A stretch of DNA of 64,000 nucleotides. Origin: Demequinaceae bacterium. GTDB taxonomy: Bacteria; Actinomycetota; Actinomycetes; Actinomycetales; Demequinaceae. Positions within the stretch are counted from its first letter, which is position 1, and each line of letters begins with the position of its first letter. The position numbers and the translations under genes were made by a program. A model generated the notes under the pieces. It searched no databases, had not been told where the DNA came from, and saw only the letters and a program-made list of their open reading frames with translations. The stretch is taken from positions 62,001-126,000 of the forward strand of contig JAFGBM010000012.1 of NCBI GenBank assembly GCA_016933155.1, in the 5' to 3' direction. Shown here piece after piece: positions 3,790 through 20,759 of this stretch.

Positions 3790-3793
<4 letters not shown>

Positions 3794-5291: not shown

Positions 5292-5527
5292 GGATATAAT
5301 CCTATCACTGTCATACCTTTCGTGAGTGGTTTTGATCCATTCGATGCCCGCCCCGTCTTGTGCGCCCGAGCCAGCCCTGAAGGCTCTGATGGCGAGACGA
5401 ACGGATTTCAGGCAAGCACGACGATTCTGATTCGACACGAACGGCGACGCGCGGCCGACGGACAGCCGGGTGGACGGGTTGCCGCACGGTTGGACCTGGG
5501 GACACCACAACCGCCTGGCGCGTGCAG

Positions 5528-5551
5528 TGGAGCGCGATGGTGCGCGCTCCA
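5528..5551 (-). terminator. Stem-loop after the pRiA4b-type gene
   Basis: A perfect 9-bp stem (TGGAGCGCG at 5528-5536 with CGCGCTCCA at 5543-5551, loop ATGGTG) lies about 20 bases past the stop of the gene at 5571-7088. Position fits a terminator for that gene. No clear U tract follows on the minus strand, so termination is inferred. The rest of 5292-5570 shows no gene. Confidence 0.4.
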
Positions 5552-5570
5552 TGGGCTGATCCGTCGCCCC

Positions 5571-7088
5571 TCAGCGACCCGAAGACGACCGGTGCCGGGC
5601 GAGGTCGGCGGGGAGGGCGAGGATGTCGCGGGCGAAGGCGCGGCCGGCCTCGGTCGCGGCGCCGCGCCGGGTCCGGCTGTTACGCTCCCACGCGCCGAGT
5701 ATGTCAAACACGTCCAGCGCCAGGCGTCCGGCGTCCCGCGCCGTGAACGCGTCGATCTCCTCGCCCGACCGGGACGTCCACCCGACGATCTGGAGGGCGT
5801 CGGCGACGGCGTCGCCATACGGATCCCTCAGGCGGTCCCGCGGGTGGTCCCACGTGGAGTCGCGCCCGGCCGCCAACTCGACGGCGAACAACAGCGCCGC
5901 ATCCCGCTCCACGTCCGTCTTCGCCCTGTCCACCACCGCCCGGGCGAGGTGCCGCCAGAGGCCCAGGGCGTCGTCGGCCACCTTCCTCCCCGCAGGGGTC
6001 AGCAGGAGCATCCCCTTCTGGACGCGGAGGAGCCCGACGGCCATGGCCGTGTGGCGGAGGTCGAACACCGAATTGGTTTGGTTCTCCCGGTTGCCGGTGC
6101 CCACCTCGCGGTCCTGCCACCCCAACTCCGCGAGGGCGTCGACGACGACGGCGGGCGGGAGCCACCCGGCGGCGGTCAGCTTGAGCCCCGTGGGGCCGAC
6201 GCGGTGGAGGAGCCAGGCGAAGGGCCGGACGGCGGCTTGTATGACCGATGGGTCGACGGCGGGGTCGGTGACGGCGACGTCGAGGTCAACCCCGGCCCGG
6301 TCGAGGTAGATGCGGAACTCCGGCACCCAGCCGTCCACCATGATCTCTATGAGGGCGTCGATTGCGGTCGGCCGCCGGGGCGCCGCGTCGACGTCGGGGA
6401 ACTGCCGGGCCAGCTCCCGCGAGATGAGCCCGACGTCGGGGGGCGTGCCGTGGGGCCACACCCAGGGTCCCTGGAGGTCGTGGACCCAGCGGGCCGCGGG
6501 GAGGTGATCCTCGTGGGTCGGGTCGCCCGCCGCCTCCCGCATCTCCGCATACCCCGGAGGGCCGCCGGAGTCCTCCCAGGGGGTGTTCCCCTCCGCCCGA
6601 ACCAAGGTGGCGCGCGACTCACCCGGCTCGCCCGCGCAGGTGTCCACCCATTCGAGCGTGTGCACCCACCCGTCGCCGAAGTCGTACTCGTACTCGACCG
6701 GGGGGTGGGACTCGGCGAACACCTCCCCCACCTTCGCGTCCGCCTCTGGAATGCCGGTCATCCCCTCGGCGAGCGAGCGTTCGTCCCGCCAATACTTCCT
6801 GAGCCGCCTCTCCCCCATCGGCCCGTACTCGACGGACGTCCCGTGCCGGGTGGACGACGCCCCGCGCGCGTCGGCGGGCACCGTCACGTCCTTCGGCAGG
6901 TCCAGTTCCTGGGCGAAGGCGTGGAGGTGGTAGTCCCGCCACCCGAACGCGACCTGCAACGCCCGGTGGAGTTCCTCCAGGGTCATCTCGGCGTCGACGT
7001 CAAGCACCCTCCACACCTCGGGCTCGACCCATTGGAGCGCCGCGCGAATCCGCACCATCTGGCGCCCAGCGCCCGTCGACTCGCCCAT
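5571..7088 (-). CDS. pRiA4b ORF-3-like / IS1096 TnpR-passenger family protein, long form
   Basis: A 505-residue protein. The first ~190 residues are a plasmid pRiA4b ORF-3 domain: MVRIRAALQWVEPEVWRVLDV, LEELHRALQVAFGWRDYHLHAF, and YDFGDGWVHTLEWV. The C-terminal ~300 residues are a mostly helical domain often joined to it in actinobacteria, of unknown function. Despite the common IS1096 name there is no transposase or resolvase motif. Start ATG at 7088 has GGAGG eight bases upstream. It is read in the same direction as the defence genes upstream (7321-18748) and the AbiE pair downstream, so it sits inside the accessory region. Role unknown. Confidence 0.75.
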   Translation of the reverse strand: MGESTGAGRQMVRIRAALQWVEPEVWRVLDVDAEMTLEELHRALQVAFGWRDYHLHAFAQELDLPKDVTVPADARGASSTRHGTSVEYGPMGERRLRKYWRDERSLAEGMTGIPEADAKVGEVFAESHPPVEYEYDFGDGWVHTLEWVDTCAGEPGESRATLVRAEGNTPWEDSGGPPGYAEMREAAGDPTHEDHLPAARWVHDLQGPWVWPHGTPPDVGLISRELARQFPDVDAAPRRPTAIDALIEIMVDGWVPEFRIYLDRAGVDLDVAVTDPAVDPSVIQAAVRPFAWLLHRVGPTGLKLTAAGWLPPAVVVDALAELGWQDREVGTGNRENQTNSVFDLRHTAMAVGLLRVQKGMLLLTPAGRKVADDALGLWRHLARAVVDRAKTDVERDAALLFAVELAAGRDSTWDHPRDRLRDPYGDAVADALQIVGWTSRSGEEIDAFTARDAGRLALDVFDILGAWERNSRTRRGAATEAGRAFARDILALPADLARHRSSSGR

Positions 7089-7320
7089 GGCATTGACCTC
7101 CCGCAGTGCAGTCAGCCGCCGACGACCGGCCCGGCCGAATGCACACGACACTAGCAATCGACCGCGACGAGCGACCACAACCATCTGGTCCGGGACCATA
7201 TCCGCGCCTAGCCCCCCGGCGACTGTGAAGGTTCAAGATCTCATCGCGTTGTTCAACGCCCCACCAAAGAAGTAGCAGTGGAGAAAGGGGGCTGTTCTTA
7301 ATGTGCGCGGACGGAAATCC

Positions 7321-10300
7321 CTACTCCTCCTCGAATCCGTGATCCGAGAACTTCAGCGTTGTCGAGTTCTCGCGCACAGTGCGAATGGTCTCAGGCGTGA
7401 ATCCATCCGGGTTCCGCGCTGTGATCTCAACGCTGATCTCGAGTTCCGTGCCCTCTTGGGCTGCGAGACGCTCCAGCACCTCCTTCGTGATGTCACCAAA
7501 GTCGCGCGCGAATCGTTCGGGGTGGAGTGTCTTGGATCCGAAGTAACGGGTCTTGAGCGCAGGCTTTGATGGCTCTGGAGGAGTCGGGGCTATGGGTCCA
7601 GAACCCGATGAGGGTGACGGCTTGAGTCCAGGTGAAGCGTCGTGACCGGGAGGGGGAGTCTCCGCGGCTCGCTGTGCAAGGGCCAAGTCGGGTCGCACCA
7701 GTAGCCACGAGTCAGTGACACCCAGCGGCTCTTCGTCCATCGACGGAACACGGAGCCCAACGTAGCGGCCACCACCCTCGTCCCACCCCTCGGCGAGAGC
7801 GAAACCTTCCTTCTCCCACATGACGGTCCCGGACAGCCCGAACGCGTCCGTCACCGCGCGATCGAGCGTGGCGCGCCCAACCAGCCGGTCAAGGTAGGGG
7901 TACTGCGTGTACAGAGACCACAGCTCACCTACCGAGACGTGACCGCGTTTCCACAAGACCGCGAGGGGTCCGTCCAATGCCATCCGGATCCGGGCCGCCG
8001 AGTACACGGTCGAGAGCCGGTCACTCGTCCGGAGCTTCTTCGACACGCCAGTCCCGATCCCGGCCGTCGTGTCGGTCAGGCGTTCGGGAAGGATAGAAGC
8101 GGGCGCGGTGGGCGGGCTTTGGACGGGTACCAGAAGCCAGCAGAGCGCGCCGCGTAGACGGTCTACCACGGTCTGGTTCTCCTGCTTGAGTCGAGACGCC
8201 ACCTGCTCGGCCTGATTCGGCGGCAGGTTCAGAGACTTGTCCTCGGCGATCTCCTTCCAGGCCAGGTAGGAGCAGACGGCGCTTTCGACGTTGTCCACGT
8301 ACTGGGAGTCGTCGAACGCCGCGAAAGCCAGCATGTTGCCGTGCTTCCGGGCTCCGCTTCCGTGACGCTGGAACACCTCGAGGGCGAAGGCCATGGCCTC
8401 GGAGTCCTCGGCGCCCTTTCGATGCCTGAGACGTGGCGAGAGAAGCACGAGACGAGCGGTATCGACATCGGGCACGTCCCCGCTCGATTCGGGGGAGGGA
8501 TGAACCGCCGTGAAATCACCCCGATCGGAAGCAAGGGCGCGTAGCCGATCCTTGACCTCCTCCCACACCACCTCGGGAGACTCCCGTAGCCGATCGGCCC
8601 GATCTCGCGCACTCCGCCCGATCGAAGGAGAGGTGTCGAACCAATACCGGCCGTTGTCGGTGTAGATGTATGTAGCTCGCTGGGATAGAAGTTCTAGGGC
8701 CGAACCGAAGTTCCCCACGGTGTCGCCAGGGACCGCCACCCCCAGCCACAGGTACGGCCGCTCCACCCCCTTGTGCTCGGTCTTGACCGTAGGGGCGGTG
8801 TCGATGAAGACAGTCCGGGCGATGCGCCGGGTGAGGCTCCGTTTGCCGAAGACGGGACGCTCGTCATCGATCTTTCGGGGCGTGGCATCGTCACCGTCGA
8901 TGTCCCGGTCGATGATGGGCTTCCAGCTGTCCTCAAGGTAGTTGGTGAGTTCGCTGTGGGTCGCGTTCGAGAACAGCGGTACGGAACCGGGCATGATGAG
9001 CGGGCTTGGGTCCTGGTCGCGCCACAGCGTGTAGATGACCGTCGACATAAAGCGGAGCACCCCTCGCGTCCGTTGGAAGCGATCGAGAGTCGACCAGTCG
9101 GTGTAGAGACGGTCGAAGAGCTCGGGGTGGATGGGGTAGGCGGATTCGATTCGCTTCTGGTAGGCGGTGTCGTCGGTACCGCGGGGGAATTGCCCCTTGT
9201 TCTCTCGGTAGTAATCGACGAATGCCCGCGCTACGGCTCCGATGTCCCTCCTGGCCTCGGCTCCCGGCTCCTTGAAGAGGCGTCGCCTGACGATCTCGAA
9301 CGACTCCTCCTGGTTGGCGGGTTTCCAGTGGTCCGCCTTACGCCCCACGACGTTCTTGAGGGCCTCGAGCGCCTGGCGTCCTCGGGCTCCGCCTACCTCG
9401 ATGAGCGACCCCTCCTCCATCTTCGAGTTGCTGTCGGAGGCGGGGATGGAGATGATGAGCATCGCACCGGGGGTCGCGGAGACCGCCTCGGTCAGTTGCT
9501 GGGCGAAGGTGAATTGAGCCTCGAATCTGCCGCCCACGAGGGAGTCATCGTCATTGAGGTTCCTTGCGTAGGCGACCCACTCGTCGATGAGGATGAGGGC
9601 TGGGGAGTGGGCGGCGATGAGCTTGGTCATCGCGTCGCCGGGTGGGGTGCTGGTGCGGTCCGAGTCCGCGATGACGTCGTAGGCCGCGCGTCCCCCGAGT
9701 TGCCAGGCCAGTTCGCCCCACAGGGTGCGGACCTCGGTCCCATCGGATTTGTTGCGTGGCTGGTTCGCGCCCAGGTGGGTGCCGACTAGAGCCACCCGCC
9801 TTACCTTGAGGTCCTCGATCTTGACCTTTCCGACGACTTCCTGGACGGATTGGGGAAAGGCGCTCGCCTTGGTTCCGGAGAACAGGTGCCAGAGCGCGAG
9901 CATCGAGTGGGTCTTGCCTCCGCCGAAATTGGTTTGAAGGTTGACGACCGGGGAGGCGTTGCTGTCACCGGAAAGCCGACGCGTCGCCCGGTCTAGGAGG
10001 TCGCGGAGTCCCTCGGTGACATAGGTTCGGGCGAAGAACTTGATCGGGTCCGAATACTCGTCGTCTGTGGAGTCTCCGGAAGCCACCAGGTGCAAGTCAG
10101 CGGCAAACTCGGCTGCGTTGAAGTTGCCGCTCGCGACATCGTCATGGGGCTCGATGACCTCGCGCCACGATTTCAGACCCTTGCCGGGTGTGTCCGCTAC
10201 TCCCACGGCGGCCTGCTTGGTCTTGCGGGTACGGTCGTCAAAGGTGGTGCGCAGGTGGTCGTTGTAGGAGCGGTCGATCTCCTCGGCCTCGGACACCGCC

Positions 10301-10662
10301 CCGATGGCCCTCAGCAGCAGGCGAGCGGTATCGAGCGCCCGGGTGGTGTCGTCCGCCGTGAAGGTCTCGGTGTGTGCCCAGCGGTTCCGTATGTCGCGCA
10401 GTTCGGAGGCATAGTTCTGGTGGACTCGGTCGAGCGCGGGAAAGGCCCGCCACTCCTCGGTCAGGCATCGCAGCAGGATCTGCAGGTCGTTCTTCTTGTA
10501 TTGATGGGAGGTCCCGTGTCGCTGGTTGTCACGCGCCTGTAGCAGGGCGATCCAATCTTTACCAGGAGCGGCCGCGGACATCTTCTCGTCGACGTAGGGG
10601 AGTAGACCCGCCGCGATTATCTCAAGCGCTCGGCCGATGCGATCCCTGTTGTTGACGGCCAT
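7321..10662 (-). CDS. Swt1-type HEPN / DUF499 AAA-like ATPase (anti-phage associated)
   Basis: A 1113-residue protein. The N-terminus resembles the Swt1 HEPN domain and contains RNRWAH (R92-x4-H97), the Rx4-6H signature of HEPN ribonucleases. It is followed by a DUF499 ATPase: Walker A NFGGGKTH near residue 245 and a Walker B-like LILIDEWVAYA near 357. The C-terminus (LKTRYFGSKTLHPERFARDFGDI) is typical of DUF499. DUF499 proteins recur beside DUF1156 methyltransferases and large helicases in defence islands. The start has GGTGGAG upstream; the methyltransferase ends 33 bases before it, so the two are one operon. The mechanism is inferred: an ATP-driven sensor or motor with a possible RNase head. 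Confidence 0.85.
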   Translation of the reverse strand: MAVNNRDRIGRALEIIAAGLLPYVDEKMSAAAPGKDWIALLQARDNQRHGTSHQYKKNDLQILLRCLTEEWRAFPALDRVHQNYASELRDIRNRWAHTETFTADDTTRALDTARLLLRAIGAVSEAEEIDRSYNDHLRTTFDDRTRKTKQAAVGVADTPGKGLKSWREVIEPHDDVASGNFNAAEFAADLHLVASGDSTDDEYSDPIKFFARTYVTEGLRDLLDRATRRLSGDSNASPVVNLQTNFGGGKTHSMLALWHLFSGTKASAFPQSVQEVVGKVKIEDLKVRRVALVGTHLGANQPRNKSDGTEVRTLWGELAWQLGGRAAYDVIADSDRTSTPPGDAMTKLIAAHSPALILIDEWVAYARNLNDDDSLVGGRFEAQFTFAQQLTEAVSATPGAMLIISIPASDSNSKMEEGSLIEVGGARGRQALEALKNVVGRKADHWKPANQEESFEIVRRRLFKEPGAEARRDIGAVARAFVDYYRENKGQFPRGTDDTAYQKRIESAYPIHPELFDRLYTDWSTLDRFQRTRGVLRFMSTVIYTLWRDQDPSPLIMPGSVPLFSNATHSELTNYLEDSWKPIIDRDIDGDDATPRKIDDERPVFGKRSLTRRIARTVFIDTAPTVKTEHKGVERPYLWLGVAVPGDTVGNFGSALELLSQRATYIYTDNGRYWFDTSPSIGRSARDRADRLRESPEVVWEEVKDRLRALASDRGDFTAVHPSPESSGDVPDVDTARLVLLSPRLRHRKGAEDSEAMAFALEVFQRHGSGARKHGNMLAFAAFDDSQYVDNVESAVCSYLAWKEIAEDKSLNLPPNQAEQVASRLKQENQTVVDRLRGALCWLLVPVQSPPTAPASILPERLTDTTAGIGTGVSKKLRTSDRLSTVYSAARIRMALDGPLAVLWKRGHVSVGELWSLYTQYPYLDRLVGRATLDRAVTDAFGLSGTVMWEKEGFALAEGWDEGGGRYVGLRVPSMDEEPLGVTDSWLLVRPDLALAQRAAETPPPGHDASPGLKPSPSSGSGPIAPTPPEPSKPALKTRYFGSKTLHPERFARDFGDITKEVLERLAAQEGTELEISVEITARNPDGFTPETIRTVRENSTTLKFSDHGFEEE

Positions 10663-10695
10663 GCGGCTCCACCTCCATCGTTCGCCCGGCTAGCA

Positions 10696-13530
10696 CTACG
10701 ACTGGTCCAGTCTGTCCCATTCGAGGCCCGGTTGCGACTCCACGGGCCCGTGCCGCGCCACCTGGTCCGCACCAGCCGTGAGGTCGTGCCACGAGGTGGC
10801 GAGGGTGTTGAAGAGGATCGCGTCTTGCGCGCGTTCCTTCTCGGCGACTTTGTAGAGGCGGAGCGCCAGGGTCTGCACTTCGGCCCGGTCAATCACCCCT
10901 TGCGCCTTGGCCATGAGTGCGCTGGCGGCGTCCAAACCCAGGGAGTCGAGAAGCCGGATCAGGTGCATCGCTCCCTCCCACACGGATGTGTGCTTGTCGG
11001 TGGCTGGGTCCCAATCCGTGGGCATCAACCTGGGTTCGATCAGCTGCACCTTGCCAGCCTTGCTCGTGAGGACACCTCCGCGCGCGAGCCCTTCGACCGA
11101 AGTGTTCATGGCGCGGGCGAGCACGTCTGCTTGGCCGAAATCCTGGGCGGTCCACCCGTACTGCTCGTACCACTTGATGCAGAAGCGCGTGTCGCCGTCA
11201 AGGTTCGCGTCCTGTTCGGAGAGCACCTCGTCCAGTACCTGGTTGATGAGCGCGAGTGCGGTCTTGACGGTCATGGCCGCGCCGTCCGCCTCGACGACCT
11301 TGCTGTGGCGCGAGAAGATCGCCATACCCGGCCCGATGGTCGCCTGAGCAAGGTCAACGGCCGCGATCGCCCCCTGCTTCATTTCGGCAAGAGCATGAGG
11401 AAGGTCACGTTTCAGTTCCGCGATGAACGACCCCCTCGCGACGGCACCAGCCGTCGCCTCGCGCGGGCGGAGGGCGAGAACAATGGACGACGCGAGGGCG
11501 TTGGTTCCTGAGGCGATCATCCGGTTGCTCAGTTCGCTCCGCACCGGCCACGTCGCGGTGATGGCCCATCCCGAGCGGATCATTCCCTCAAGGAGCGTGG
11601 ACCACCCGGTCGAGGCGATGCCCTCGGCCTCGAGTTCAGCTTGCTTGAATGCGTAGTAGACGGTGATGGGGAAGTCATCGAGCGCGGTCTCCCGGGCACG
11701 CGCAAACACACGCTCGAATCCCTGCTCGAAGAACTTCGACGCGCCTTCCTTTCCGTCGTGGCGGTAGGGGTTCGCGACGAGTTCCTCCGCCTTCGGCACA
11801 AGGACGGTACTCAGGAGTTGCGGGTGGATGTCATGGATCGAGCGGCGGAGCCACACGTAGAAGAAGTCGGAGAGGTCTGAGTAACCAATGTTGTCGTAGT
11901 ACGGCGGGTCGGTCGAGAGGAGTGCGCCCCCAAACGAGCGCGTGGCCGCATCGGCCTGGGCGGCGTACGCAGTGATCTCTGCGCCGGGAAGAGCGTCGAG
12001 AACTCGCGTGACCCAACTGAGGTCTTCGACATAGCTGCCTGATGAACTCGCGAAAGGGTTGCTCTCCGCGTAGTCCCAGGTCATCGGGAGAGCCTGCCGA
12101 GCGAAGACGCCTCGCACCGCGTCCATCTTGGGGCTACTGTCCCAACTACATATGGATGATGCTTTGTTGGTAGTGCGGCTCAGGGCCATCGCGAGATAGG
12201 TGGCGACGGCGTCGGCATAGCCGGCGGCGTCGCTGCCGCCAGCTTCGAGGCGGTCACCCTTGGGTGCACCACCCGCAAGAGCATCCGCGAGCACCTGCGT
12301 CCGGGCTTCCATCACGAGGTCACTGAAAGTCGTGAGCGCTGTGAGCTGCCGGTTTGTGAAGGCATCGCTCCACCGAGGCATGCCATACATCGGCAAGCGG
12401 TCTACATCGTGGTTGGGGGTCGTGACGAGCTGATCTGGAGTATCGGCGGGCCGCTCGACCCGAAGTGCAGCGTCACGGTGAGCGGCATTGGGCTGAAGGT
12501 AGTCTCGTCGAGCAGTGCCTTCCGCGACGACTGTCATCAACTGGATGCCCAGCCCACTTCCGGTTGCCTGGCTACGAATGGCATCGTTTGTTGCCACAGA
12601 CCCGCACGCGAGGCACCTGCCCTTGCCGTGATCCATGGTCCCGCCCGCATCGTCCGTTGGCGCCCCGGCCGCATCGTGCCCGATGCTGAACTCGACACGT
12701 CGTCCGCCGCGAGCGCTGGCATCGTCCACAACCGTCGGGATCACGTACGCAGGGCGGTTCTTCTTCTTGCTCAGCCACCACGAGCGCACGAGCGGCATCT
12801 CAATGCCGCACGCCGGGTTGGGGCACGTGACCGTGCGGGCCCAGATCCATGCGATGACCGTCGCCTGCGACCCGTCGGCGAGTGTCGCCTTGGGGTAAAG
12901 GTGGCCGATGCGTTCCTCGGCACGGTCGCGCATCCACACGCCGTAGCGGCGGACGTCCTCGGCGAGGCCGGTCGCGCGCGGCCAGGCGCCCATCTTGGTC
13001 GCGGCCGCACCGGGGAACACCGGCGGGCGGCCCGCGAACTTGGGCGGGATCTCGATGAGCGCCTTGTTGATGAGCACCGCGACCGGGTTGAGGTCGCTCG
13101 CGTGGGCCTCGAGTCCGAGGCGCTGCGCTTCGAGCGGGATGGTGCCGCCGCCCGCGAACGGGTCGAGGATGGCGGGCGGGTGGCCTCCCGTGGAGTTCAG
13201 GATCTCCTGGTGCGCCTGCTTGAACAGGGCGGTGTCGTTGATGTTCTCCCACACCACGAGCTTGCGGATGATGTCGTGGAGGCGTTCACGTTCCTTCGCC
13301 TGATCCTCCTCGGTGGGGAAGCGGTCCGGGTGCGATGAGGGGTCGTCGACGAGCTGGGCGAAGAGGACAGCGCGGGCGGCGGCGAGGGGTCGTCGGGCCC
13401 ACCAGAGGTGCAAGGTGGACGGGTGGCCGTGGCGGATGGACTTCTCGCGCGCGGACTCGCGGTTGATGTCCTCGAGCGGGAGGGAGACCTCGATGAGTTT
13501 GCGCTTCAGAGCGGGGTCCATGCCCCCCAT
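10696..13530 (-). CDS. DUF1156 DNA methyltransferase (anti-phage associated)
   Basis: A 944-residue amino-methyltransferase. The DUF1156 N-terminus is unmistakable (KLIEVSLPLEDINRESAREK, then HGHPSTLHLWWARRPLAAAR). The SAM-binding motif I, DPFAGGGT, is at residues 123-130 and the catalytic DPPYYDNIGY near 539, so motif I precedes the DPPY. A zinc-ribbon-like insertion has CPNPACG near 236 and CLACG near 308. It probably methylates host DNA (N6-adenine or N4-cytosine) to mark self. ATG 13530 is given; ATG 13521 is an alternative with a better-spaced AGGA. It lies upstream of the DUF499 gene in one operon. No classical restriction endonuclease is adjacent. Confidence 0.9.
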   Translation of the reverse strand: MGGMDPALKRKLIEVSLPLEDINRESAREKSIRHGHPSTLHLWWARRPLAAARAVLFAQLVDDPSSHPDRFPTEEDQAKERERLHDIIRKLVVWENINDTALFKQAHQEILNSTGGHPPAILDPFAGGGTIPLEAQRLGLEAHASDLNPVAVLINKALIEIPPKFAGRPPVFPGAAATKMGAWPRATGLAEDVRRYGVWMRDRAEERIGHLYPKATLADGSQATVIAWIWARTVTCPNPACGIEMPLVRSWWLSKKKNRPAYVIPTVVDDASARGGRRVEFSIGHDAAGAPTDDAGGTMDHGKGRCLACGSVATNDAIRSQATGSGLGIQLMTVVAEGTARRDYLQPNAAHRDAALRVERPADTPDQLVTTPNHDVDRLPMYGMPRWSDAFTNRQLTALTTFSDLVMEARTQVLADALAGGAPKGDRLEAGGSDAAGYADAVATYLAMALSRTTNKASSICSWDSSPKMDAVRGVFARQALPMTWDYAESNPFASSSGSYVEDLSWVTRVLDALPGAEITAYAAQADAATRSFGGALLSTDPPYYDNIGYSDLSDFFYVWLRRSIHDIHPQLLSTVLVPKAEELVANPYRHDGKEGASKFFEQGFERVFARARETALDDFPITVYYAFKQAELEAEGIASTGWSTLLEGMIRSGWAITATWPVRSELSNRMIASGTNALASSIVLALRPREATAGAVARGSFIAELKRDLPHALAEMKQGAIAAVDLAQATIGPGMAIFSRHSKVVEADGAAMTVKTALALINQVLDEVLSEQDANLDGDTRFCIKWYEQYGWTAQDFGQADVLARAMNTSVEGLARGGVLTSKAGKVQLIEPRLMPTDWDPATDKHTSVWEGAMHLIRLLDSLGLDAASALMAKAQGVIDRAEVQTLALRLYKVAEKERAQDAILFNTLATSWHDLTAGADQVARHGPVESQPGLEWDRLDQS

Positions 13531-13607
13531 CCTATTGACCGCCCCGACAGGATGCTCGGCATGCGAGCGTCACCGACAACAACCAGCGGAGTGTCGGAGG
13601 GTGGCAC

Positions 13608-13613
13608 TAGCAT
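13608..13613 (+). promoter_or_regulatory. -10 element of a probable leaderless TAC transcript
   Basis: TAGCAT ends six bases before the ATG at 13620, so transcription would start at or next to the start codon. No Shine-Dalgarno sequence is spaced correctly. No convincing -35 is visible. The same TANNNT-N6/7-start layout occurs before several other genes here. Confidence 0.45.
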
Positions 13614-13619
13614 CCGGAC

Positions 13620-14081
13620 ATGACCATCTCGCGCTGCTGTCGGCCGCAGAACAGTCCGTACTTCTGGTACGACTTCATCGACACGGCCAACAAGTCGGTC
13701 GTACGCTTCAACGAATGGCTTGAAGGATTGCCGATCGCGTCCCGCCAAGACGTTGTGGGCATGATTCAGGTTCAAGAGGATCGGGCAACGAAGGGGCGCC
13801 TCCCCAAGGGCGCTCCATACCAGATTGAACCGGTGCACACCTACGAGCACATGTTCGAGATGAAGTGGGAAGTCACCGAACCGGGCACTCGAAGGGTCCG
13901 CTTGATCAGGCAGTACCACGCCGAACCCGAGGCGGAGAAGAAAGCCCTCGTACGCCTGCACCGCCACCTCAAGCGGGTTGATGATCGAGAGACGATTTGG
14001 GCTTGGCAACAGGATGAAATCAAGTTCGCCAAGATGCGCTTCGATGCCTGGCCAGGAGTCGGATCCACCACCTTGCGGTAA
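13620..14081 (+). CDS. HigB/RelE-like toxin of a TAC module
   Basis: A 153-residue protein I assign as the toxin of a toxin-antitoxin-chaperone system. It has a RelE/HigB-like pattern: VVRFNEWLEGLP (helix), YEHMFEMKWEV and RRVRLIRQY (strands), then a basic helix ending WQQDEIKFAKMRFDAW, resembling mycobacterial HigB1 in order and spacing. HigB toxins are ribosome-dependent or free mRNA endonucleases. The assignment rests mainly on context: an XRE antitoxin and a SecB-like protein follow on the same strand. It is divergent from the DUF1156 methyltransferase (89 bases between starts). Similarity to HigB is weak by eye, so the fold is not certain. Confidence 0.65.
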   Translation: MTISRCCRPQNSPYFWYDFIDTANKSVVRFNEWLEGLPIASRQDVVGMIQVQEDRATKGRLPKGAPYQIEPVHTYEHMFEMKWEVTEPGTRRVRLIRQYHAEPEAEKKALVRLHRHLKRVDDRETIWAWQQDEIKFAKMRFDAWPGVGSTTLR

Positions 14082-14083
14082 CG

Positions 14084-14105
14084 AATACAACCTAGAAGTT
14101 GTATT
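14084..14105. promoter_or_regulatory. Perfect inverted repeat upstream of higA: likely HigA operator
   Basis: AATACAAC (14084-14091) and GTTGTATT (14098-14105) form a perfect 8-bp inverted repeat with a 6-base spacer, three bases after the toxin stop and 28 bases before the antitoxin ATG. The AT-rich symmetric half-sites suit an XRE dimer. This suggests that the antitoxin and chaperone have their own autoregulated promoter inside the module. A weak terminator is the alternative reading. Confidence 0.6.
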
Positions 14106-14133
14106 GTAGGTACTCAGCGATTAGGGAGACGTC

Positions 14134-14520
14134 ATGGACGCGAAGTGCCAACAATGGCGTGCAACTGCACTTGCAGGCAACGACCTCGATATGCGGATCA
14201 AGCTCATCGAAATCAGGCGCGCCAACAACATCACCCAAGAGGATGTCGCCAAAGCGCTAGGGATCTCCCAGCAGGCCGTCTCGGCATTCGAACGCCTTGA
14301 GTCTGATCCGCGGCTCTCGACGATTCGTCAATACGCCAACGCCATCGGCGCCATGGTTCGACATGATGTCCGAGCTGATGGGGATCGTGATGACGACCTC
14401 GAGTGGTTCGACTTCAACCATGACATCGACGTTTCGGTGACACTCCCGGCAACCGGCCAGAGCGTCATCTCTCGCGAGGCGGTGACCGGCGCGAAGAACG
14501 ACTTCGCCCTGACATCGTGA
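14134..14520 (+). CDS. XRE-family antitoxin (HigA-like) of the TAC module
   Basis: A 128-residue DNA-binding antitoxin. Residues ~21-73 form a helix-turn-helix (IRRANNITQEDVAKALGISQ, QAVSAFERLESDPRLSTI). A ~50-residue tail follows (WFDFNHDIDVSVTLPATGQ...), which fits a chaperone-addiction segment as in mycobacterial HigA1. The ATG has GGGAG upstream. The stop overlaps the SecB-like gene start (GTGA), so antitoxin and chaperone are translationally coupled. It probably binds the 14084-14105 palindrome and represses the module. Confidence 0.8.
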   Translation: MDAKCQQWRATALAGNDLDMRIKLIEIRRANNITQEDVAKALGISQQAVSAFERLESDPRLSTIRQYANAIGAMVRHDVRADGDRDDDLEWFDFNHDIDVSVTLPATGQSVISREAVTGAKNDFALTS

Positions 14521-14999
14521 CCACCGCGAAAGGCATCGCAGACGCGAAGGCGCTTCTGGGTATCTGCGAACTCACGGGAATACGGTTCTGGGAGGAGTCT
14601 GTGCGTCGTCAGGCCACCGAGACTCCGGCCGACCCGACCGCGTCTTCCGACGCGCATGAAGCCGGGATCCGCATCAGCACGAAGATCGGTGCGAACGAGA
14701 CTGAACTCCACTTTCGATTTCGGCTCAACCTCGATGACGTTGACGCCAAGTACGTGTGTGATATCGAGACGATCTTCGCTCTTACCGAGCATTCAACCTC
14801 GGAGGTCACCGAAGAGGTACGCCGCGAGTTCGCCGAAAAGGTGGCGTTCATGGTCGCCTTCTCGCACATGCGGGCGTCAATTCTCGGCTCGGCTGGACGC
14901 CTGGGCATTGGGCAGCCGGTGCTCCCACTCATGCGCCTTGGGGAGTTCAGTATCGGGAGTCCCGTCACTCCCGAGAATGCCGAGACGGACTACTCCTAG
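14517..14999 (+). CDS. SecB-like chaperone of the TAC module
   Basis: A 160-residue SecB-fold protein. The strands alternate as in SecB (ISTKIGANETELHFRFRLNL, YVCDIETIFALTEH), then come two C-terminal helices containing FMVAFSHMRASILGSAGRLGIGQPVLPLMR, comparable to the SecB/Rv1957 block (YIREYVYDLTGRLALPPL). An actinobacterial SecB beside a HigBA-like pair is a hallmark of TAC systems, where the chaperone protects the antitoxin from aggregation and degradation. The GTG start overlaps the antitoxin stop. It converges on the helicase gene 56 bases later. Some TAC modules are anti-phage; that role here is inferred from the location. Confidence 0.75.
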   Translation: MTTAKGIADAKALLGICELTGIRFWEESVRRQATETPADPTASSDAHEAGIRISTKIGANETELHFRFRLNLDDVDAKYVCDIETIFALTEHSTSEVTEEVRREFAEKVAFMVAFSHMRASILGSAGRLGIGQPVLPLMRLGEFSIGSPVTPENAETDYS

Positions 15000-15055
15000 T
15001 AAGGGGGCCTCCCTAGTGGGAGAGACGAGGGGCTCGTGAGGAAAATGAGGGACGG

Positions 15056-18000
15056 CTAGAAGGGCAATGCTGCGGCGTCCCACAACGCCTTCCACCCGTA
15101 GGTGACGCGCGTGACCGTCGGGTCATCCATGGGCGTCGCGTCGAAGGGACGGGTGACGTAGCGCACCGCGTCCAGGTGGGGGCTATCCGGGTGGACGCTC
15201 ACGAGGGCGAGCCGGTAGTTATCCGCCGCGTTCTTCCCGAGGAGGACTTCGCTCTTGGTGACTGTCACCTCAGTTGCCCCCGCCAGGCGGCCCTTGACCT
15301 CGATGAAAATGGTAGGGCCGTCGGGCACCGAAGACTGGATGTCATACCCCTTGTTGGTGCGACGCATCTCAGTCGGGACGCGATCCAAGGCGCGTTCCGC
15401 GGCTAGCGTGGCATCCACGGCTCGGCGCTCGACCTCCTCCGTTTCCCGGGCATGCTCCGGAGGAAGCGCGACCTCGTCGGGCGGAAGGACCAAGGCCACG
15501 CCTGCGACGGTGGCGGGCAAGGCCGTGAGGCGCTCGGAAGCCTCGATCTGCTTGAGCCGCCGGTCCAGTCGCCCTTCGAGATCCCGCGACTTCTCCTCGG
15601 CGTACTCGGGGGAATAGCGCACACGAACCCCCCGCCTGCGCTTATCGAGAGCTTCGAGGCGATAGCTGTCCCAGTACTTCATCTCCTTGTTGAGGCGTCT
15701 AGAGACGAGCTCCCGGGTTTTGTCCGCCACAGCCGTCATCCGTCGTTCGACAGCATCGAGGTGAAGAGGAATCGAATGCTGGGCCGCCCACGCCCGAGCT
15801 GTAGCCTCCGGGCCCGCTACAAGCCAATCTTGTTGGGCGATTTCGCGGCCGCGAGTGGTCACGGCCTCAGAGGGCACGTCGAGGTCGAGGTAGGGCGTGG
15901 ATCCCGCGGATGTGGCCTCTCCGGAGGGATGGATATCCATGAATGAGAAGGCGCGGGAGATCGTATGCGGTTGAGGGGTGCTTCCGTCGCGGATTTCCTC
16001 GGTGAGCGCGACGAACAGGCGTGGCTCGCTACTATCGGGATCCGCCCAGATCGTTCCCCGGCGGAGGGTGTCGCCATACTTCTCCGTGATCATCGACCCC
16101 ACGGTGTCCAGCAAGGGATGGCCGGGGGCGAGCAGATCCGCCCGTGGGGGTCCCTCCACCTTGTCGAGGTCGAAGGTCACACGCTCGTAGTGGCTGATGA
16201 GGGGGGTGCGGGTGGGGGTGCGGCGGGATGCGTCGATCAATGCCGCCGGTACGCGGGTGATTTCGAAGCGCCTGGATTCCCGCTCGACCATGCGACCGCC
16301 GAGGTCCTCGAAAGCCGTCCGGAAGAAGGCTTGGATGTGGTGTGGCTGGAGGCGCCTCGCCTGAGCCTCGTCCATCTCCCTGCGAACCTTCTCCACATCC
16401 TCCGCTGGCATGTCGATGGAGTTGAGGGAGTTTTCCTTGATGAGTTCGGGGATGCCGAGACTGACCGCGGCGTCGATGACCATCTCCAGCCGGGCCCTGA
16501 CCTCGGGCTGATCGCCATACCGGATAGCCTCCATCATCAGCTTCTCCAAAGGTCGACCCTCGAAGGCGTTCCCGATGACATCGAAGACCTTTCCGCCGTA
16601 GGCCTCACGTTGGATGGCGATCTTCTCCAGGAGGGTCTGGTAGACCTGACCTTCGCGAGTCTCCGCGGCGACAAGGTTCCAGAGGTGACACACCTCCGTC
16701 TGACCGATGCGGTGGATGCGACCGAATCGTTGTTCGATCCGGTTGGGGTTCCAGGGCAGGTCGTAGTTGACCATAAGGTGCGCGCGCTGAAGGTTGATGC
16801 CCTCGCCAGCCGCGTCCGTCGCCACGAGGATCCGAACCTTTGGATCCTTCGAGAATGACTCCCGGATGGATCGTCGATCCTCCCTGCGCGTGCCGCCATG
16901 GATCGTCACAACCGCGTCGCCTCGGCCGAGGAAGTCGCCGATGCGTTTGACGAGGTAAGTGAGGGTGTCGCGGTGCTCGGTGAACACGATGAGCTTGTCC
17001 ACGTTAGGAGAGTCCGGCGCCGAAGCCACTTTGTCGCCCAAGATGGCGCTCAGCTGTTGCCACTTCGCGTCCGTTCCAGCGTGATAGACCCGCCTGGCGA
17101 GTTCGACCAAGCGCTCAAGACTGCTGATCTCGATGGCGAGTTCTTCGGCGGTCATGGCAGCGGTCGCCGAATCCATGATCTCTTCCTCGAGGACCTCCAC
17201 CTCGTCGCTCGTGAAGTCCTCCATTGCCTCATAGAAGGCACTCGGATCCATTGCGCTATCCAAGGACCGGATCTCATCCTCCATCCAGGACTCCAACACG
17301 GAACCCTGGGCGACCTTGCGCATCTTGTCGCGCTGGGACTCCAGGCGTGCCTTGCGACGCTCAAGGCTACGGAGAATGGCCTCCGGGCTAGATGCCAAAC
17401 GGCGCTGAAGGACGGTGAGGGCAAATCCCACCCTGTTGCCCCGTCGTCCCTCTCCCGCGTCCTTGAGCCGGTCGGCGCGGTTCATCTCGTCGCGCACGTA
17501 GGCGGAGACCTGCTCATAGAGGTCTCGCTCCGCGGGCGAGAGCATGTAGTTGGCCGTGTAGGCGAAACGCTCCGGAAAGAGGCGCTTGCCCTCCATGGTC
17601 AGGAGGTCCTCCTTGATCATCCGGCGCATGATGTCTCGAGCGTCGTCGCGGGCGGCCTTTGGATCATGGTGGCCCTCGAACCGATCGGGGTCGAGGAGGG
17701 AGAGAAAGAGCTGGTACGCCTGATCGTCGCCTGCGTGCGGGGTGGCGGTCATGAGCAAGAAGTGACGGGTGTTGGTGCTGAGGATCTGGCCGAGTTGGTA
17801 CCGGAGCGTGGTCTTGAGTTCGTTGCCGTAGTAGTTGGCGGACATACGGTGCGCTTCGTCGACGACGATGACGTCCCACTCAACCTGCTCCAGGAGGGGG
17901 TGAAGGTCGTCGCGTCGTGCGAGGTGGTCCATACGGGCAATGAGGTAGGGATGCTGATCGAAGACGTTGCCACCGGTGGCGTTCTCGATGAGGTCGTTGC

Positions 18001-18748
18001 TGAGTAGGTCGAAGTGGAGGCCGAACTTCTCGCGGAGTTCATCCTGCCACTGCTCGACGAGGCTCCCCGGGGGAACGATGAGGCAGCGGTCCAGGTCGCC
18101 CCGGAGCAGGAGCTCTTTGAGGTAGAGGCCAGCCATGATCGTCTTGCCGGCGCCGGGGTCGTCCGCGAGGAGGTAGCGGAGTGGGGTGCGCTGGAGCAGT
18201 TCGCCATACACGGCGCGGATCTGGTGCGGGAGGGGGTCGATCTGGCTGGTAGTGACGGCAAGCATGGGGTCGTAGAGCGCGGCGTTCTTAATCCGGAGGG
18301 CCTCCGCGGCGAGGCGCCAGGCGTGCGGGTCAGCGTCGAAGGTGGCCTGGCCGTTGCCGCCCGCGCCCGTGTGTTGGCGAAGACTGGCCTCGTCCTTGCG
18401 GAAAAGGAGGGCCTCGCCGGTCTTTCCCTCCGAATCCCGGTAAACGACGTTGACGACGTCAGCGCCGTGGCGTTCGATAGCGACGACCGTCACCACACCG
18501 GGGAGGCTGGGAGCGCTGACTCGTTGGCCCGGGGCGAGCGCTGCGAAAGCGTCCGGCTGCGGGGTCTCGAATTCGCTCACAGGCTCGATCCCCTCCTTCG
18601 GCGGGTAGCAAGTCGCCGCCTGCACCGAACCTATCGCACCGAGTAGGCGGGTGCCCTGAGAAATGGCAGGAAACCCTGTGCCGCCTTCTAGTAAGACGTC
18701 GGTCCCCGCCCACCCGTCGGCCGTCCTGACAATCCTGAGCGTCGTCAT
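15056..18748 (-). CDS. SNF2-family helicase with C-terminal DUF3883 (anti-phage associated)
   Basis: A 1230-residue superfamily 2 helicase/translocase. Motif I LLADDPGAGKT lies near residue 196, DEAH (VVDEAHRMS) near 299, and motif VI (QRFGRIHRIGQ) near 673. The C-terminus has a DUF3883 domain (KGYDIQSS...IFIEVKGRL near 1130-1160), a PD-(D/E)xK-like fold whose E-V-K looks nuclease-like. It is read in the same direction as the methyltransferase and DUF499 genes, but the TAC module separates them. The first ~70 residues look foreign to the family; the recognisable part begins near FAALAPGQRV. The reading frame stays open upstream to 18881 without a start codon, so the N-terminus is uncertain. 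Confidence 0.88.
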   Translation of the reverse strand: MTTLRIVRTADGWAGTDVLLEGGTGFPAISQGTRLLGAIGSVQAATCYPPKEGIEPVSEFETPQPDAFAALAPGQRVSAPSLPGVVTVVAIERHGADVVNVVYRDSEGKTGEALLFRKDEASLRQHTGAGGNGQATFDADPHAWRLAAEALRIKNAALYDPMLAVTTSQIDPLPHQIRAVYGELLQRTPLRYLLADDPGAGKTIMAGLYLKELLLRGDLDRCLIVPPGSLVEQWQDELREKFGLHFDLLSNDLIENATGGNVFDQHPYLIARMDHLARRDDLHPLLEQVEWDVIVVDEAHRMSANYYGNELKTTLRYQLGQILSTNTRHFLLMTATPHAGDDQAYQLFLSLLDPDRFEGHHDPKAARDDARDIMRRMIKEDLLTMEGKRLFPERFAYTANYMLSPAERDLYEQVSAYVRDEMNRADRLKDAGEGRRGNRVGFALTVLQRRLASSPEAILRSLERRKARLESQRDKMRKVAQGSVLESWMEDEIRSLDSAMDPSAFYEAMEDFTSDEVEVLEEEIMDSATAAMTAEELAIEISSLERLVELARRVYHAGTDAKWQQLSAILGDKVASAPDSPNVDKLIVFTEHRDTLTYLVKRIGDFLGRGDAVVTIHGGTRREDRRSIRESFSKDPKVRILVATDAAGEGINLQRAHLMVNYDLPWNPNRIEQRFGRIHRIGQTEVCHLWNLVAAETREGQVYQTLLEKIAIQREAYGGKVFDVIGNAFEGRPLEKLMMEAIRYGDQPEVRARLEMVIDAAVSLGIPELIKENSLNSIDMPAEDVEKVRREMDEAQARRLQPHHIQAFFRTAFEDLGGRMVERESRRFEITRVPAALIDASRRTPTRTPLISHYERVTFDLDKVEGPPRADLLAPGHPLLDTVGSMITEKYGDTLRRGTIWADPDSSEPRLFVALTEEIRDGSTPQPHTISRAFSFMDIHPSGEATSAGSTPYLDLDVPSEAVTTRGREIAQQDWLVAGPEATARAWAAQHSIPLHLDAVERRMTAVADKTRELVSRRLNKEMKYWDSYRLEALDKRRRGVRVRYSPEYAEEKSRDLEGRLDRRLKQIEASERLTALPATVAGVALVLPPDEVALPPEHARETEEVERRAVDATLAAERALDRVPTEMRRTNKGYDIQSSVPDGPTIFIEVKGRLAGATEVTVTKSEVLLGKNAADNYRLALVSVHPDSPHLDAVRYVTRPFDATPMDDPTVTRVTYGWKALWDAAALPF

Positions 18749-18880
18749 CGAGCCTACGAGCGCGGCCGCACCACCCGTCTGGACGAGGGCGACGAGGGAG
18801 GATTTGTCGGACTCGGCGATCAGTTTCGGCGAGGCGACCGCTTCGACGTCACCGTCGAGCCACGAACGAATCCCCGGTCA
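18749..18880 (-). other. Open frame without start codon upstream of the helicase
   Basis: The helicase frame continues upstream for 44 codons to a TGA at 18881-18883 without ATG, GTG or TTG, and reads like a protein (SWLDGDVEAVASPKLIAE, then SDKSSLVALVQTGGAAALVG). Either the helicase starts from a rare codon such as CTG, or its N-terminal ~70 residues are the tail of another gene joined to it by recombination. I do not recognise the family. Confidence 0.4.
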
Positions 18881-18912
18881 TCCGTGACACACCACCCATC
18901 GGGATGCCACAC

Positions 18913-18996
18913 GAGGAGGCATCTGCGTCGCGGTGCACACCCTCGCGTAGAAAGCGCGAAGCCCGGCAAGTCGTCCATCCGGACGCCAGCCGGGCT
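18913..18996 (+). pseudogene. 3' remnant plus terminator of a second DUF3800-like gene
   Basis: This stretch reads GGICVAVHTLA-stop at 18950 and continues into a hairpin. It matches the last codons (RGICVEVHTLA) and terminator of the gene ending at 19654. The hairpin arms are AGCCCGG (18960-18966) and CCGGGCT (18990-18996). In the intact copy they are AGCCTGG and CCAGGCT, a compensated pair change that supports a real RNA stem. The body of this second copy is missing. Confidence 0.65.
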
Positions 18997-19099
18997 CACT
19001 TCGCCGCGCTACTGCACGGCGCTCCATCAGTGTCCCACGGTCGATGGTGAGAGGAAAGCCCCGGGCCGCGAGGCCCCACTCCTGGAAGTACGCCCCGGA

Positions 19100-19654
19100 T
19101 TGGCCCTGTGGCAGGGTCCCGGGGCCTCTGCATTCATTGATGAGTCGAAAGCACGCGGATTCCGATTTGCCGGTGCACGAATCGAAAACGATGAAGTCGA
19201 CAACGTACGGAAGACTGTCAGACGAATCGCAGCACCCCACGCGCGGCGTTTCCACGCGACACACGAATCGGCCGCAGCCAAACGGCGCGCTCTCGACATC
19301 CTCGCCACACTCCCGGTCACGTATCTCATCGTCGACGTGCCGCATGGTCGCCTGTGGCCTGCTCCACGGGAAGACGGCGTCGCCTGGGTCATGGCCCACG
19401 CCTGTACCACGGCGGTGTCTCGCGTCGTGTTCGAGCGGGACGACGCGAACCTCGACCGGGATCGACGCACCGCTTCCCGAATCCTGAAACCCATTCCCGA
19501 GTCTCAGCGTCCTACTTTCGTCCACCTGCGAGCGCACGAGGAGCCGCTGCTCTGGATACCGGATCTCGTCGTCGGGGCGTGGTCCAAGCCGACGACGTGG
19601 CGGCGGGCTTTGGAGGAGCGCGGCATCTGCGTCGAGGTACACACCCTCGCCTAG
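19100..19654 (+). CDS. DUF3800-like (RNase H-fold type) protein
   Basis: The body starts with SAFIDESKARGFRFAGARI, the FIDES opening typical of DUF3800-like proteins, and includes RRFHATHESAAAKRRALDIL and a C-terminal LRAHEEPLLWIPDLVVGAW found in a widespread actinobacterial family of unknown role. The acidic residues of FIDES and the conserved HE fit an RNase H-like fold, but catalysis is not shown. The start is uncertain: TTG 19100 gives ~184 residues, close to family length; an in-frame GTG at 18884 falls inside the remnant of another copy and is unlikely. Codon use is less GC-biased than in neighbours, suggesting transfer. Confidence 0.55.
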   Translation: MALWQGPGASAFIDESKARGFRFAGARIENDEVDNVRKTVRRIAAPHARRFHATHESAAAKRRALDILATLPVTYLIVDVPHGRLWPAPREDGVAWVMAHACTTAVSRVVFERDDANLDRDRRTASRILKPIPESQRPTFVHLRAHEEPLLWIPDLVVGAWSKPTTWRRALEERGICVEVHTLA

Positions 19655-19663
19655 AAAGCGCGA

Positions 19664-19700
19664 AGCCTGGCGGGCCGACCGTCCGGAAGGCCACCAGGCT
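19664..19700 (+). terminator. Terminator after the DUF3800-like gene
   Basis: Stem AGCCTGG (19664-19670) with CCAGGCT (19694-19700), starting ten bases after the stop. The same structure with compensating base changes follows the truncated copy at 18960-18996. It is followed by CACTTCTC rather than a pure U run. Confidence 0.5.
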
Positions 19701-19819
19701 CACTTCTCAGGGCGAGCGCCCTTTGCTCTTCCATTGTGCACCGCCCAAATGGCAACCGCAACGGTCCGCGACCCCTGCGGTCGGGCGCGGCCAGCAGGCC
19801 AACGACTAGGGTCATCCCC

Positions 19820-20746: not shown

Positions 20747-20759
20747 GAATCCACTAGTC

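What the first reader, a model, noticed from the sequence alone, without database searches (positions are those of the whole stretch)
7321..18748. Defence cassette (DUF499 ATPase, DUF1156 methyltransferase, SNF2/DUF3883 helicase) with a TAC module inside it
Seen: three large genes on the minus strand of families that co-occur in anti-phage loci, interrupted by a plus-strand HigB-HigA-SecB module placed exactly between methyltransferase and helicase. Known: DUF499 and DUF1156 proteins are recurrent defence-island partners, and some TAC systems (e.g. CmdTAC) sense phage proteins. Inference: the TAC may guard the cassette (toxin released if the cassette or the chaperone's client balance is disturbed) or be a second independent layer. 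No classical restriction endonuclease is adjacent, so the killing activity may lie in the HEPN or DUF3883 domains.
Basis: partly seen in the sequence, partly recalled or inferred. Interest (0 to 1): 0.78.

Follow-up and report, generated by a model that had tools for sequence, protein, structure and literature searches.

The report
Toxin–antitoxin–chaperone module inside a Hma cassette
A known three-gene bacterial phage-defence cassette carries, between two of its genes and on the opposite strand, a separate chaperone-controlled toxin–antitoxin module whose antitoxin ends in a peptide resembling the cell's own 'destroy me' tag.

Summary
The three minus-strand genes form a Hma system (PADLOC HmaA/B/C), also called a 'Type-1 BREX-related' cassette. 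A plus-strand toxin–antitoxin–chaperone (TAC) module fills the hmaA–hmaB junction. The chaperone is SecB-like: best sequence and fold match Rv1957, the mycobacterial TAC chaperone. The toxin is a very divergent, probably HigB/Gp49-type protein (weaker label). Both lie in a 27.7-kb stretch missing at this place in a same-genus genome. The TAC has lower GC than its surroundings; relatives sit on plasmids, phages and other chromosomes, none beside Hma in the 22 stretches read. Among 80 other Hma loci, 6 hold recognisable toxin–antitoxin genes inside or directly beside the cassette, including a TAC in Thermus and a TAC remnant in Meiothermus; one more has a relative of this TAC about 9 kb away. 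So TAs nest in Hma repeatedly, most simply as cargo. The 'guard' idea has no positive support. The best new observation: several TAC antitoxin tails resemble the host tmRNA (ssrA) tag (window ...NDFALTS, own tag ...TDFALAA), suggesting a chaperone-masked ClpXP-type degron. New variant of a known kind.

The parts
7321..10662 (-). hmaC: Swt1-like HEPN fused to DUF499 AAA+ ATPase
   Evidence: Pfam HEPN_Swt1 1.7e-29, DUF499 4.3e-31; PADLOC HmaC 873.8 bits; HEPN motif RNRWAH at residue 92
10696..13530 (-). hmaB: DUF1156 DNA methyltransferase (amino-methyltransferase-type motifs DPFAGGG, DPPY)
   Evidence: Pfam DUF1156 1.9e-32; PADLOC HmaB 1077.5 bits, 'DNA-adenine methylase'; motifs
13531..13619 (.). 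89-bp divergent gap between the hmaB and toxin start codons; the likely place of a local promoter for hmaBC
   Evidence: ORF coordinates; sequence; no sigma-70-like match and no copy of the 14084-14105 palindrome in it; one 80% inverted repeat overlaps it (13519-13533/13549-13563)
13620..14081 (+). TAC toxin, divergent, probably HigB/Gp49-like (153 aa)
   Evidence: No Pfam hit itself; family of 12, 2 of which match Gp49 (best 5.4e-4); invariant or nearly so: E80, R97, E102, H116, K118, Q130, A137
14084..14105 (.). Perfect inverted repeat AATACAAC-N6-GTTGTATT in the toxin-antitoxin gap; likely antitoxin operator (inferred)
   Evidence: the only exact TACAAC-N6-GTTGTA in the 64 kb
14134..14520 (+). 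TAC antitoxin: XRE/HTH_3 domain plus about 50-residue tail ending KNDFALTS (ssrA-tag-like)
   Evidence: HTH_3 2.3e-12; tail against own tmRNA tag ANSNRTDFALAA
14517..14999 (+). SecB-like TAC chaperone; start overlaps the antitoxin stop by 4 bases
   Evidence: Profile of 11 sequences hits PDB 5mtw_C Rv1957 E 3.1e-6; AF2 model mean pLDDT 66.5; Foldseek top 4 hits all 5mtw
15056..18748 (-). hmaA: SNF2-family helicase with C-terminal NOV_C domain (PD-(D/E)XK-like motif)
   Evidence: HmaA 1318.3 bits; GAGKT, DEAH, D-x13-EVK
3790..5552 (-). Neighbouring AbiE (AbiEii 3790-4704, AbiEi 4701-5552), in the same variable stretch
   Evidence: Pfam/PADLOC
3715..31411 (.). 27.7-kb stretch without counterpart at this place in the same-genus genome G396, which has about 1 kb there
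   Evidence: blastn of window against G396:C170; HmaB not found anywhere in G396 (genome 94% complete)

Best explanation
A complete Hma (Type-1 BREX-related) restriction-like cassette carries an independently acquired TAC as cargo, forming a second, abortive defence layer. Shown by sequence: hmaA–hmaB–hmaC order with catalytic motifs; a probable HigB-like toxin, an HTH antitoxin and a SecB-like chaperone in the hmaA–hmaB junction on the other strand; an antitoxin tail resembling the genome's own ssrA tag. Inferred: Hma methylates self DNA and its helicase-nuclease attacks unmodified DNA, with HEPN as a suicide reserve. The TAC antitoxin represses at the palindrome upstream of its gene. Its tail is a ClpXP-type degron kept buried by the chaperone. 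When a phage protein draws the chaperone away (as capsid protein does for CmdTAC), the tail is exposed, the antitoxin is degraded and the RNase toxin stops translation.
For: Hma identity. SecB-like chaperone. Module seen as three genes on one Clavibacter and one Curtobacterium plasmid and a viral contig; as HTH plus chaperone on 4 Rhodococcus plasmids and in 4 Gordonia phages near the integrase. Chaperone in 13 of 248 genomes of the order, this one included. Separate origin: GC 0.587, below all 627 stepped windows; no Hma gene in 22 stretches around relatives. Hma junctions as insertion sites: 32 of 64 loci have over 700 bp between the aligned parts of A and B, filled with AAA_21/SMC-type ATPases, Schlafen, NYN, TA genes and others; recognisable TA genes at 6 of 80 loci. 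Tail: the window antitoxin shares 4 of its last 8 residues with its own tag, reached by 0 of 767 control C-termini; over 12 antitoxin/tag pairs 33 matches, reached by 0 of 100,000 random draws; 4 chaperone-less HTH antitoxins score 1, 1, 1, 2. Literature, passages only: Septu in Hma, and DarTG2 inside a Type I RM system (PMC12255303); Mtb HigA1 carries a ClpX degron within the chaperone-binding tail (PMC8165232); phage capsid frees CmdT (PMC11618068).
Against: The window tail ends in TS, not the AA of the tag, so it may be a poor degron. 6 of 12 antitoxins share only 1 or 2 of 8 residues with their tag; of 14 further antitoxins, Curtobacterium, Agueybana, Thermus and Meiothermus also show little likeness. 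The antitoxins are related, so the draws overstate independence. The window toxin has no family hit of its own and its structure model failed (pLDDT 35.6). TACs at Hma loci in Actinomycetota and Thermaceae, and a relative of this TAC 9 kb from hmaB in Propioniciclava, could mean more than cargo. No phage assay exists.
Confidence: 0.6

Rival explanations
1. Selfish addiction cargo: the TAC stabilises the 27.7-kb stretch (its loss kills the cell) and gives no phage protection of its own.
For: Stretch missing at this place in the same-genus genome; relatives on plasmids and in phage integrase regions; TA genes of several kinds sit in Hma loci.
Against: TACs tested in E. coli (CmdTAC, MqsRAC) protect against phages (PMC9519451, PMC11618068, passages), so a defence role is the default expectation.
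Confidence: 0.2
2. Guard: the TAC monitors Hma and releases toxin when a phage inhibits or degrades the cassette, in the manner of CreTA guarding CRISPR-Cas (abstracts in listing).
For: Exact placement between hmaA and hmaB; TAC genes recur beside hmaB in Thermus and Meiothermus; a relative of this TAC lies about 9 kb from hmaB in Propioniciclava.
Against: No Hma gene in 22 stretches around relatives of this TAC; none of 80 other Hma loci has a relative of it inside the cassette; the TAs found at Hma loci are of unrelated families.
Confidence: 0.08
3. Regulatory coupling: the TAC antitoxin also represses hmaBC from the shared 89-bp divergent gap, so antitoxin loss switches on both toxin and restriction genes.
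For: hmaBC is cut off from hmaA by an opposite-strand insert, so its promoter is probably in or near 13531-13619 (inferred).
Against: The perfect palindrome lies between toxin and antitoxin (14084-14105) and has no copy within 3 mismatches in the shared gap.
Confidence: 0.06

Closest known systems
Hma system (PADLOC) / Type-1 DUF499-centred BREX-related system
   Same: All three proteins, order A-B-C, HEPN-fused ATPase, DUF1156 methyltransferase, SNF2 helicase with C-terminal nuclease-type domain.
   Different: hmaA and hmaBC are separated by a 1.5-kb opposite-strand TAC. Embedding of another system (Septu) in Hma is already in print (PMC12255303, passage).
HigBA1-SecB(TA) TAC of Mycobacterium tuberculosis (Rv1956 antitoxin, Rv1957 chaperone; toxin number Rv1955 recalled)
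   Same: Toxin, HTH antitoxin and SecB-like chaperone; chaperone matches the Rv1957 structure best; C-terminal antitoxin tail; hydrophobic C-terminal ClpX degron reported for HigA1.
   Different: Chaperone 12-15% identical to Rv1957 in the structural alignments; window toxin too divergent for Pfam; tail resembles the ssrA tag itself.
CmdTAC / MqsRAC of E. coli
   Same: TAC architecture with tested phage defence (passages).
   Different: Different toxins and antitoxins; the passages read do not describe them as embedded in a restriction-like cassette.
RRDM island (DarTG2 embedded in a Type I RM system, EPEC)
   Same: A toxin-antitoxin module inside a restriction locus (PMC12255303, passages).
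   Different: DarTG2 lies between hsdS and hsdR in an RptR-regulated island; here the TAC is on the opposite strand and the host is Hma.

Membership tests
Hma / Type-1 BR system | HmaA, HmaB and HmaC homologues together, in that order | tested here: met
   PADLOC 1318 / 1077 / 874 bits; order
Hma / Type-1 BR system | Helicase with C-terminal PD-(D/E)XK nuclease (present in 79% of taxa in PMC12839542) | tested here: met
   NOV_C 1.6e-18, D-x13-EVK; by sequence only, activity not tested
Hma / Type-1 BR system | Uninterrupted three-gene operon | tested here: not met
   TAC interrupts hmaA|hmaB; long gaps are common in the family (32 of 64 loci over 700 bp), so I do not treat this as a defining feature failed
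Hma / Type-1 BR system | Phage protection and DNA methylation | not testable with these tools
   No wet-lab data
NCBIfam DUF499 and DUF1156 anti-phage equivalogs | Score above curated cut-off | tested here: not met
   145.9 of 1200 and 122.6 of 1000 bits
DISARM (DrmD) | DrmD equivalog score above cut-off | tested here: not met
   386.4 of 610 bits
TAC system | SecB-like chaperone in the TA operon | tested here: met
   4-base overlap with the antitoxin. Pfam SecB does not hit the window protein
TAC system | Antitoxin with C-terminal extension beyond the HTH | tested here: met
   about 50 residues after the HTH; tail likeness in part of the family
TAC system | Toxin neutralised only when antitoxin and chaperone are both present | not testable with these tools
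   Needs expression tests
HigB / Gp49 (PF05973) toxin | Match to the family profile | tested here: inconclusive
   Window toxin: none; 2 of 12 members match at E up to 10, best 5.4e-4; hhalign against 4 Gp49 proteins colinear but probability 3%, E 0.015; structure model unusable

The most novel reading that the evidence does not exclude
The antitoxin tail is a genuine ssrA-tag mimic and the chaperone reads that peptide. The TAC then senses trans-translation: when a phage wrecks mRNAs, a surge of ssrA-tagged peptides (or a changed ClpXP load) competes for the chaperone or protease, and the toxin is switched on by ribosome stalling rather than by one phage protein. Hma damage to infecting DNA could feed the same signal, which would explain why TACs lodge in such cassettes.
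Probability: 0.1. Interest if true: 0.85.

Novelty: new variant of a known kind. Interest (0 to 1): 0.5.

Why it matters
It extends the known habit of defence systems lodging inside one another to chaperone-controlled toxins. TA genes of at least four kinds sit in or beside Hma cassettes, and TAC genes do so in two phyla. The ssrA-like antitoxin tails give a concrete, testable switch for TACs (chaperone masks a ClpXP-type degron) and raise the possibility that some TACs read the state of trans-translation.

Tried and rejected
Guard model: looked for Hma genes beside relatives of this TAC. None by BLAST (E up to 1e-3) in 11 chromosomal stretches (8.3-19.9 kb), 10 plasmid/phage stretches (6.2-6.4 kb) and 1 viral contig stretch (4.6 kb); the short ones would miss Hma further off. 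Looked for the TAC in 80 HmaB loci: BLAST found one relative of the antitoxin, at the edge of L117 (Propioniciclava); profiles added its toxin, about 9 kb upstream of hmaB, and a weak chaperone match in Thermus (L083, E 0.016). L083 proved to hold a Gp49 toxin, an HTH antitoxin and the SecB-like protein, and Meiothermus (L066) an HTH antitoxin plus a C-terminal piece of the same chaperone. No hmaC is visible before the L083 contig ends, so that TAC is shown to lie beside hmaB, not between B and C.

Toxin identity: PDB phmmer, PDB profile searches, a structure model (pLDDT 35.6, not searched further) and hhalign gave nothing decisive. Only Pfam hits of relatives and the Thermus analogue (Gp49 2.5e-8) support HigB.

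Wider scans: close toxin relatives in genome contigs, none; viral contigs, none with single proteins, the same 3 loci with two alignments; toxin in the phage collection, no match. Phylum search for the chaperone: 3 of 396 genomes with the single protein (G000, G325 and a weak G358), 2 of 396 with the profile (G358 not confirmed).

Pfam SecB in 50 of the 80 Hma genomes: 26 of 50 have a match at E up to 1, 21 over the cut-off, mostly strong and so probably ordinary SecB. I matched only the weak Thermus hit (E 0.12; its contig number and coordinates fit L083) to a Hma locus and did not map every hit.

hmaB–toxin gap as a shared antitoxin operator: no copy of the palindrome there.

Literature for TAC in Hma or ssrA-like antitoxin tails: the listings of searches showed neither. 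The library lacks most subscription papers and nearly all preprints. The embedding preprint (Payne 2024) and Mets 2024 were seen only as references in other papers.
Full report
WHAT IS THERE. The three minus-strand genes at 7321-18748 are a Hma system: PADLOC HmaA 1318, HmaB 1077 and HmaC 874 bits. Pfam finds HEPN_Swt1+DUF499, DUF1156, and SNF2/Helicase_C+NOV_C. Motifs: HEPN RNRWAH, MTase DPFAGGG and DPPY, helicase GAGKT and DEAH, and D-x13-EVK in NOV_C. The ATPase has a GGGKT stretch in its translation, but the strict Walker A pattern was not found. Sources differ on HmaB: 'm5c' in PMC8565338 (passages), adenine in PADLOC-DB and in PMC12839542; the motifs fit an amino-methyltransferase. PMC12839542 (section 29) describes the same set as the 'Type-1 BREX-related system', with an often present HEPN fusion and, in 79% of taxa, a C-terminal REase on the helicase. 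It is not the NCBIfam DUF499/DUF1156 antiphage equivalog nor DISARM DrmD, all below cut-off.

THE INSERT. Between hmaA (stop at 15056) and hmaB (start at 13530), 1,525 bp hold three plus-strand genes. The chaperone shows no Pfam family (one chance-level match) and no SecB in a single-sequence PDB search. A profile of 11 sequences (the window's and 10 relatives) finds the Mtb SecB-like chaperone Rv1957 (5mtw_C, E 3.1e-6) as best PDB sequence, the next match at E 0.63. An AlphaFold2 model from 4 sequences (mean pLDDT 66.5, moderate) has four strands followed by a long helix. Its top four Foldseek matches are all 5mtw (E 8e-4 to 1.3e-3), then SecB of Haemophilus and E. coli. The antitoxin is an HTH_3 protein. 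The toxin has no family hit, but 2 of 12 family members match Gp49. A perfect palindrome AATACAAC-N6-GTTGTATT precedes the antitoxin gene.

WHERE THE MODULE LIVES ELSEWHERE. Toxin relatives occur in 16 plasmid records (10 Curtobacterium, 6 Clavibacter); I read one of each, both with toxin-HTH-chaperone order. Chaperone relatives occur in 7 Rhodococcus plasmid records; of the 4 read, all have a preceding HTH-type protein and 2 lie next to TniQ/TniB genes. They occur in 12 Gordonia phage records; of the 4 read, all have HTH+chaperone near the integrase, 2 with an annotated immunity repressor. A viral contig carries all three genes. In the order, 13 of 248 genomes have the chaperone and 6 of 248 the toxin, this genome included; in the phylum, 2 of 396 by profile. 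None of 22 stretches around such relatives holds a Hma gene (plasmid and phage stretches only about 6 kb). The TAC's GC (0.587) is lower than that of each of 627 stepped windows of its size.

THE VARIABLE STRETCH. In the same-genus genome G396, window 115-3714 (aceE side) and 31412 onward align on one contig with about 1 kb between them. So 27.7 kb, including AbiE, a pRiA4 ORF3-like gene, Hma, the TAC and three NYN genes, has no counterpart there; HmaB was not found elsewhere in G396. Whether it was gained here or lost there is not decided.

IS A TAC INSIDE HMA SPECIAL? I took 80 HmaB loci (the best 80 of 125 relatives). Of 64 with HmaA found, 32 have more than 700 bp between the aligned parts of A and B; of 70 with HmaC found, 15 have more than 1,400 bp between B and C. 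Of 132 insert ORFs I scanned as a set the 114 of 80 aa or more: AAA_21 in 19, SMC_N in 19, Schlafen AlbA_2 in 9, NYN in 5, PIN in 3, HTH_3 in 3, AbiEi_4 in 2, and others. Only 32 of the 132 were scanned singly, plus the Thermus ORFs. TA genes occur at 6 of 80 loci, a lower bound: HipBA on the opposite strand between A and B (L100); PIN+MazE-type on the opposite strand between B and C (L057); FitA-like RHH+PIN between B and C (L103); AbiEi/DUF6088 with a short partial AbiEii match, just below cut-off, between B and C (L114); Gp49 toxin + HTH + SecB-like protein directly after hmaB in Thermus tenuipuniceus (L083; contig ends before any hmaC); and HTH antitoxin + C-terminal piece of the SecB-like protein between B and C in Meiothermus luteus (L066). 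The SecB label of the Thermus protein rests on E 0.016 with a profile that did not contain it and E 0.12 with Pfam SecB, on gene order and on the alignment; a single-sequence PDB search found only its HTH part. Septu in Hma is already in print, as is DarTG2 inside a Type I RM system (PMC12255303, passages). Nesting is thus a known habit; the TAC is a new kind of occupant, seen in two phyla and in different orientation.

THE ANTITOXIN TAIL. The genome's tmRNA encodes the tag ANSNRTDFALAA; the antitoxin ends ...TGAKNDFALTS. I paired TAC antitoxins with the tmRNA tag of the same genome. Of 16 genomes, 12 gave a pair; G451 and G570 gave no antitoxin by profile, G623 and G488 no readable tag. Matches in the last 8 positions were 4 (window), 5, 3, 3, 5, 6, 1, 2, 1, 1, 1, 1; total 33. 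Control C-termini of 767 ORFs (150 aa or more) from the Hma loci average 0.63; none reaches the scores of the four best pairs, and none of 100,000 random draws of 12 reaches 33. Ten toxin and chaperone C-termini of the same modules score 0-2. Four chaperone-less HTH antitoxins score 1, 1, 1, 2. Of 14 further chaperone-linked antitoxins without their own tag read, the viral-contig one ends RTDFALAA, identical to the last 8 residues of the window genome's tag; Azula scores 5 and Horus 4 against that tag; four Rhodococcus plasmid antitoxins end SYALAV or SYALAI, 5 of 8 against a YALAA-type tag from another genome of the class (G325); Clavibacter and Suerte score 3; Curtobacterium 1, Agueybana 0 and 2, Thermus 2 and Meiothermus 2. 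Against: half of the 12 pairs show little resemblance, the antitoxins are related to each other, and the window tail lacks the final AA. In Mtb HigA1 a hydrophobic C-terminal ClpX degron lies in the same tail as the chaperone site (PMC8165232, passages), so a chaperone-masked degron is a known idea. The likeness to the ssrA tag itself was not in anything I found.

HOW IT MOST LIKELY WORKS. Shown: gene content, order, motifs, chaperone fold, tail likeness, variability of the stretch. Inferred: Hma as a restriction-like first layer; the TAC as an abortive second layer triggered by loss of chaperone from the antitoxin, with ClpXP clearing the exposed antitoxin. CmdTAC provides the tested precedent, where phage capsid displaces the antitoxin from the chaperone (PMC11618068, passages), and MqsRAC also protects (PMC9519451, passages). 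Guarding of Hma by the TAC is not excluded but nothing found favours it.

Noticed in passing
window 20812-23201 (+): Three tandem NYN-domain paralogues of about 205 aa, E 1.1e-12 to 6.5e-12, beyond hmaA in the variable stretch; NYN proteins are also among the inserts of other Hma loci (5 of 114).
   Followed up: partly
L135 206-1650 (IMG/VR viral contig): Toxin-antitoxin-chaperone module beside a large repetitive ORF on a viral contig; its antitoxin ends RTDFALAA, identical to the last 8 residues of the window genome's ssrA tag.
   Followed up: partly
L128-L131 (Gordonia phages Azula, Suerte, Horus, Agueybana): HTH + SecB-like pair near the integrase; by eye, the ORF before it in Azula (gp43) shares an AEP...L..H-K...Q pattern with the window toxin, but the toxin profile did not match it.
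   Followed up: partly
L043, L047, L050, L053, L117: Actinobacterial HmaB-HmaC loci without a BLAST-detectable HmaA, four of them with ORFs of about 505, 330-350 and 1,000-1,060 aa downstream, L117 with the 504- and 1,056-aa ones; possibly a different BREX-related subtype.
   Followed up: no
L117 1-844 (Propioniciclava tarda): Antitoxin (48% identical) and toxin relatives of the window TAC about 9 kb upstream of hmaB, next to a 1,425-aa ORF that looks like a conjugative relaxase by eye.
   Followed up: partly
window 5571-7199 (-): 542-aa protein with N-terminal plasmid pRiA4b ORF-3-like domain between AbiE and hmaC, with higher GC (0.723) than its defence neighbours.
   Followed up: no
L083 13637-14209 (Thermus): The SecB-like protein has an N-terminal resolvase-type HTH fused to it, an unusual chaperone architecture.
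   Followed up: partly
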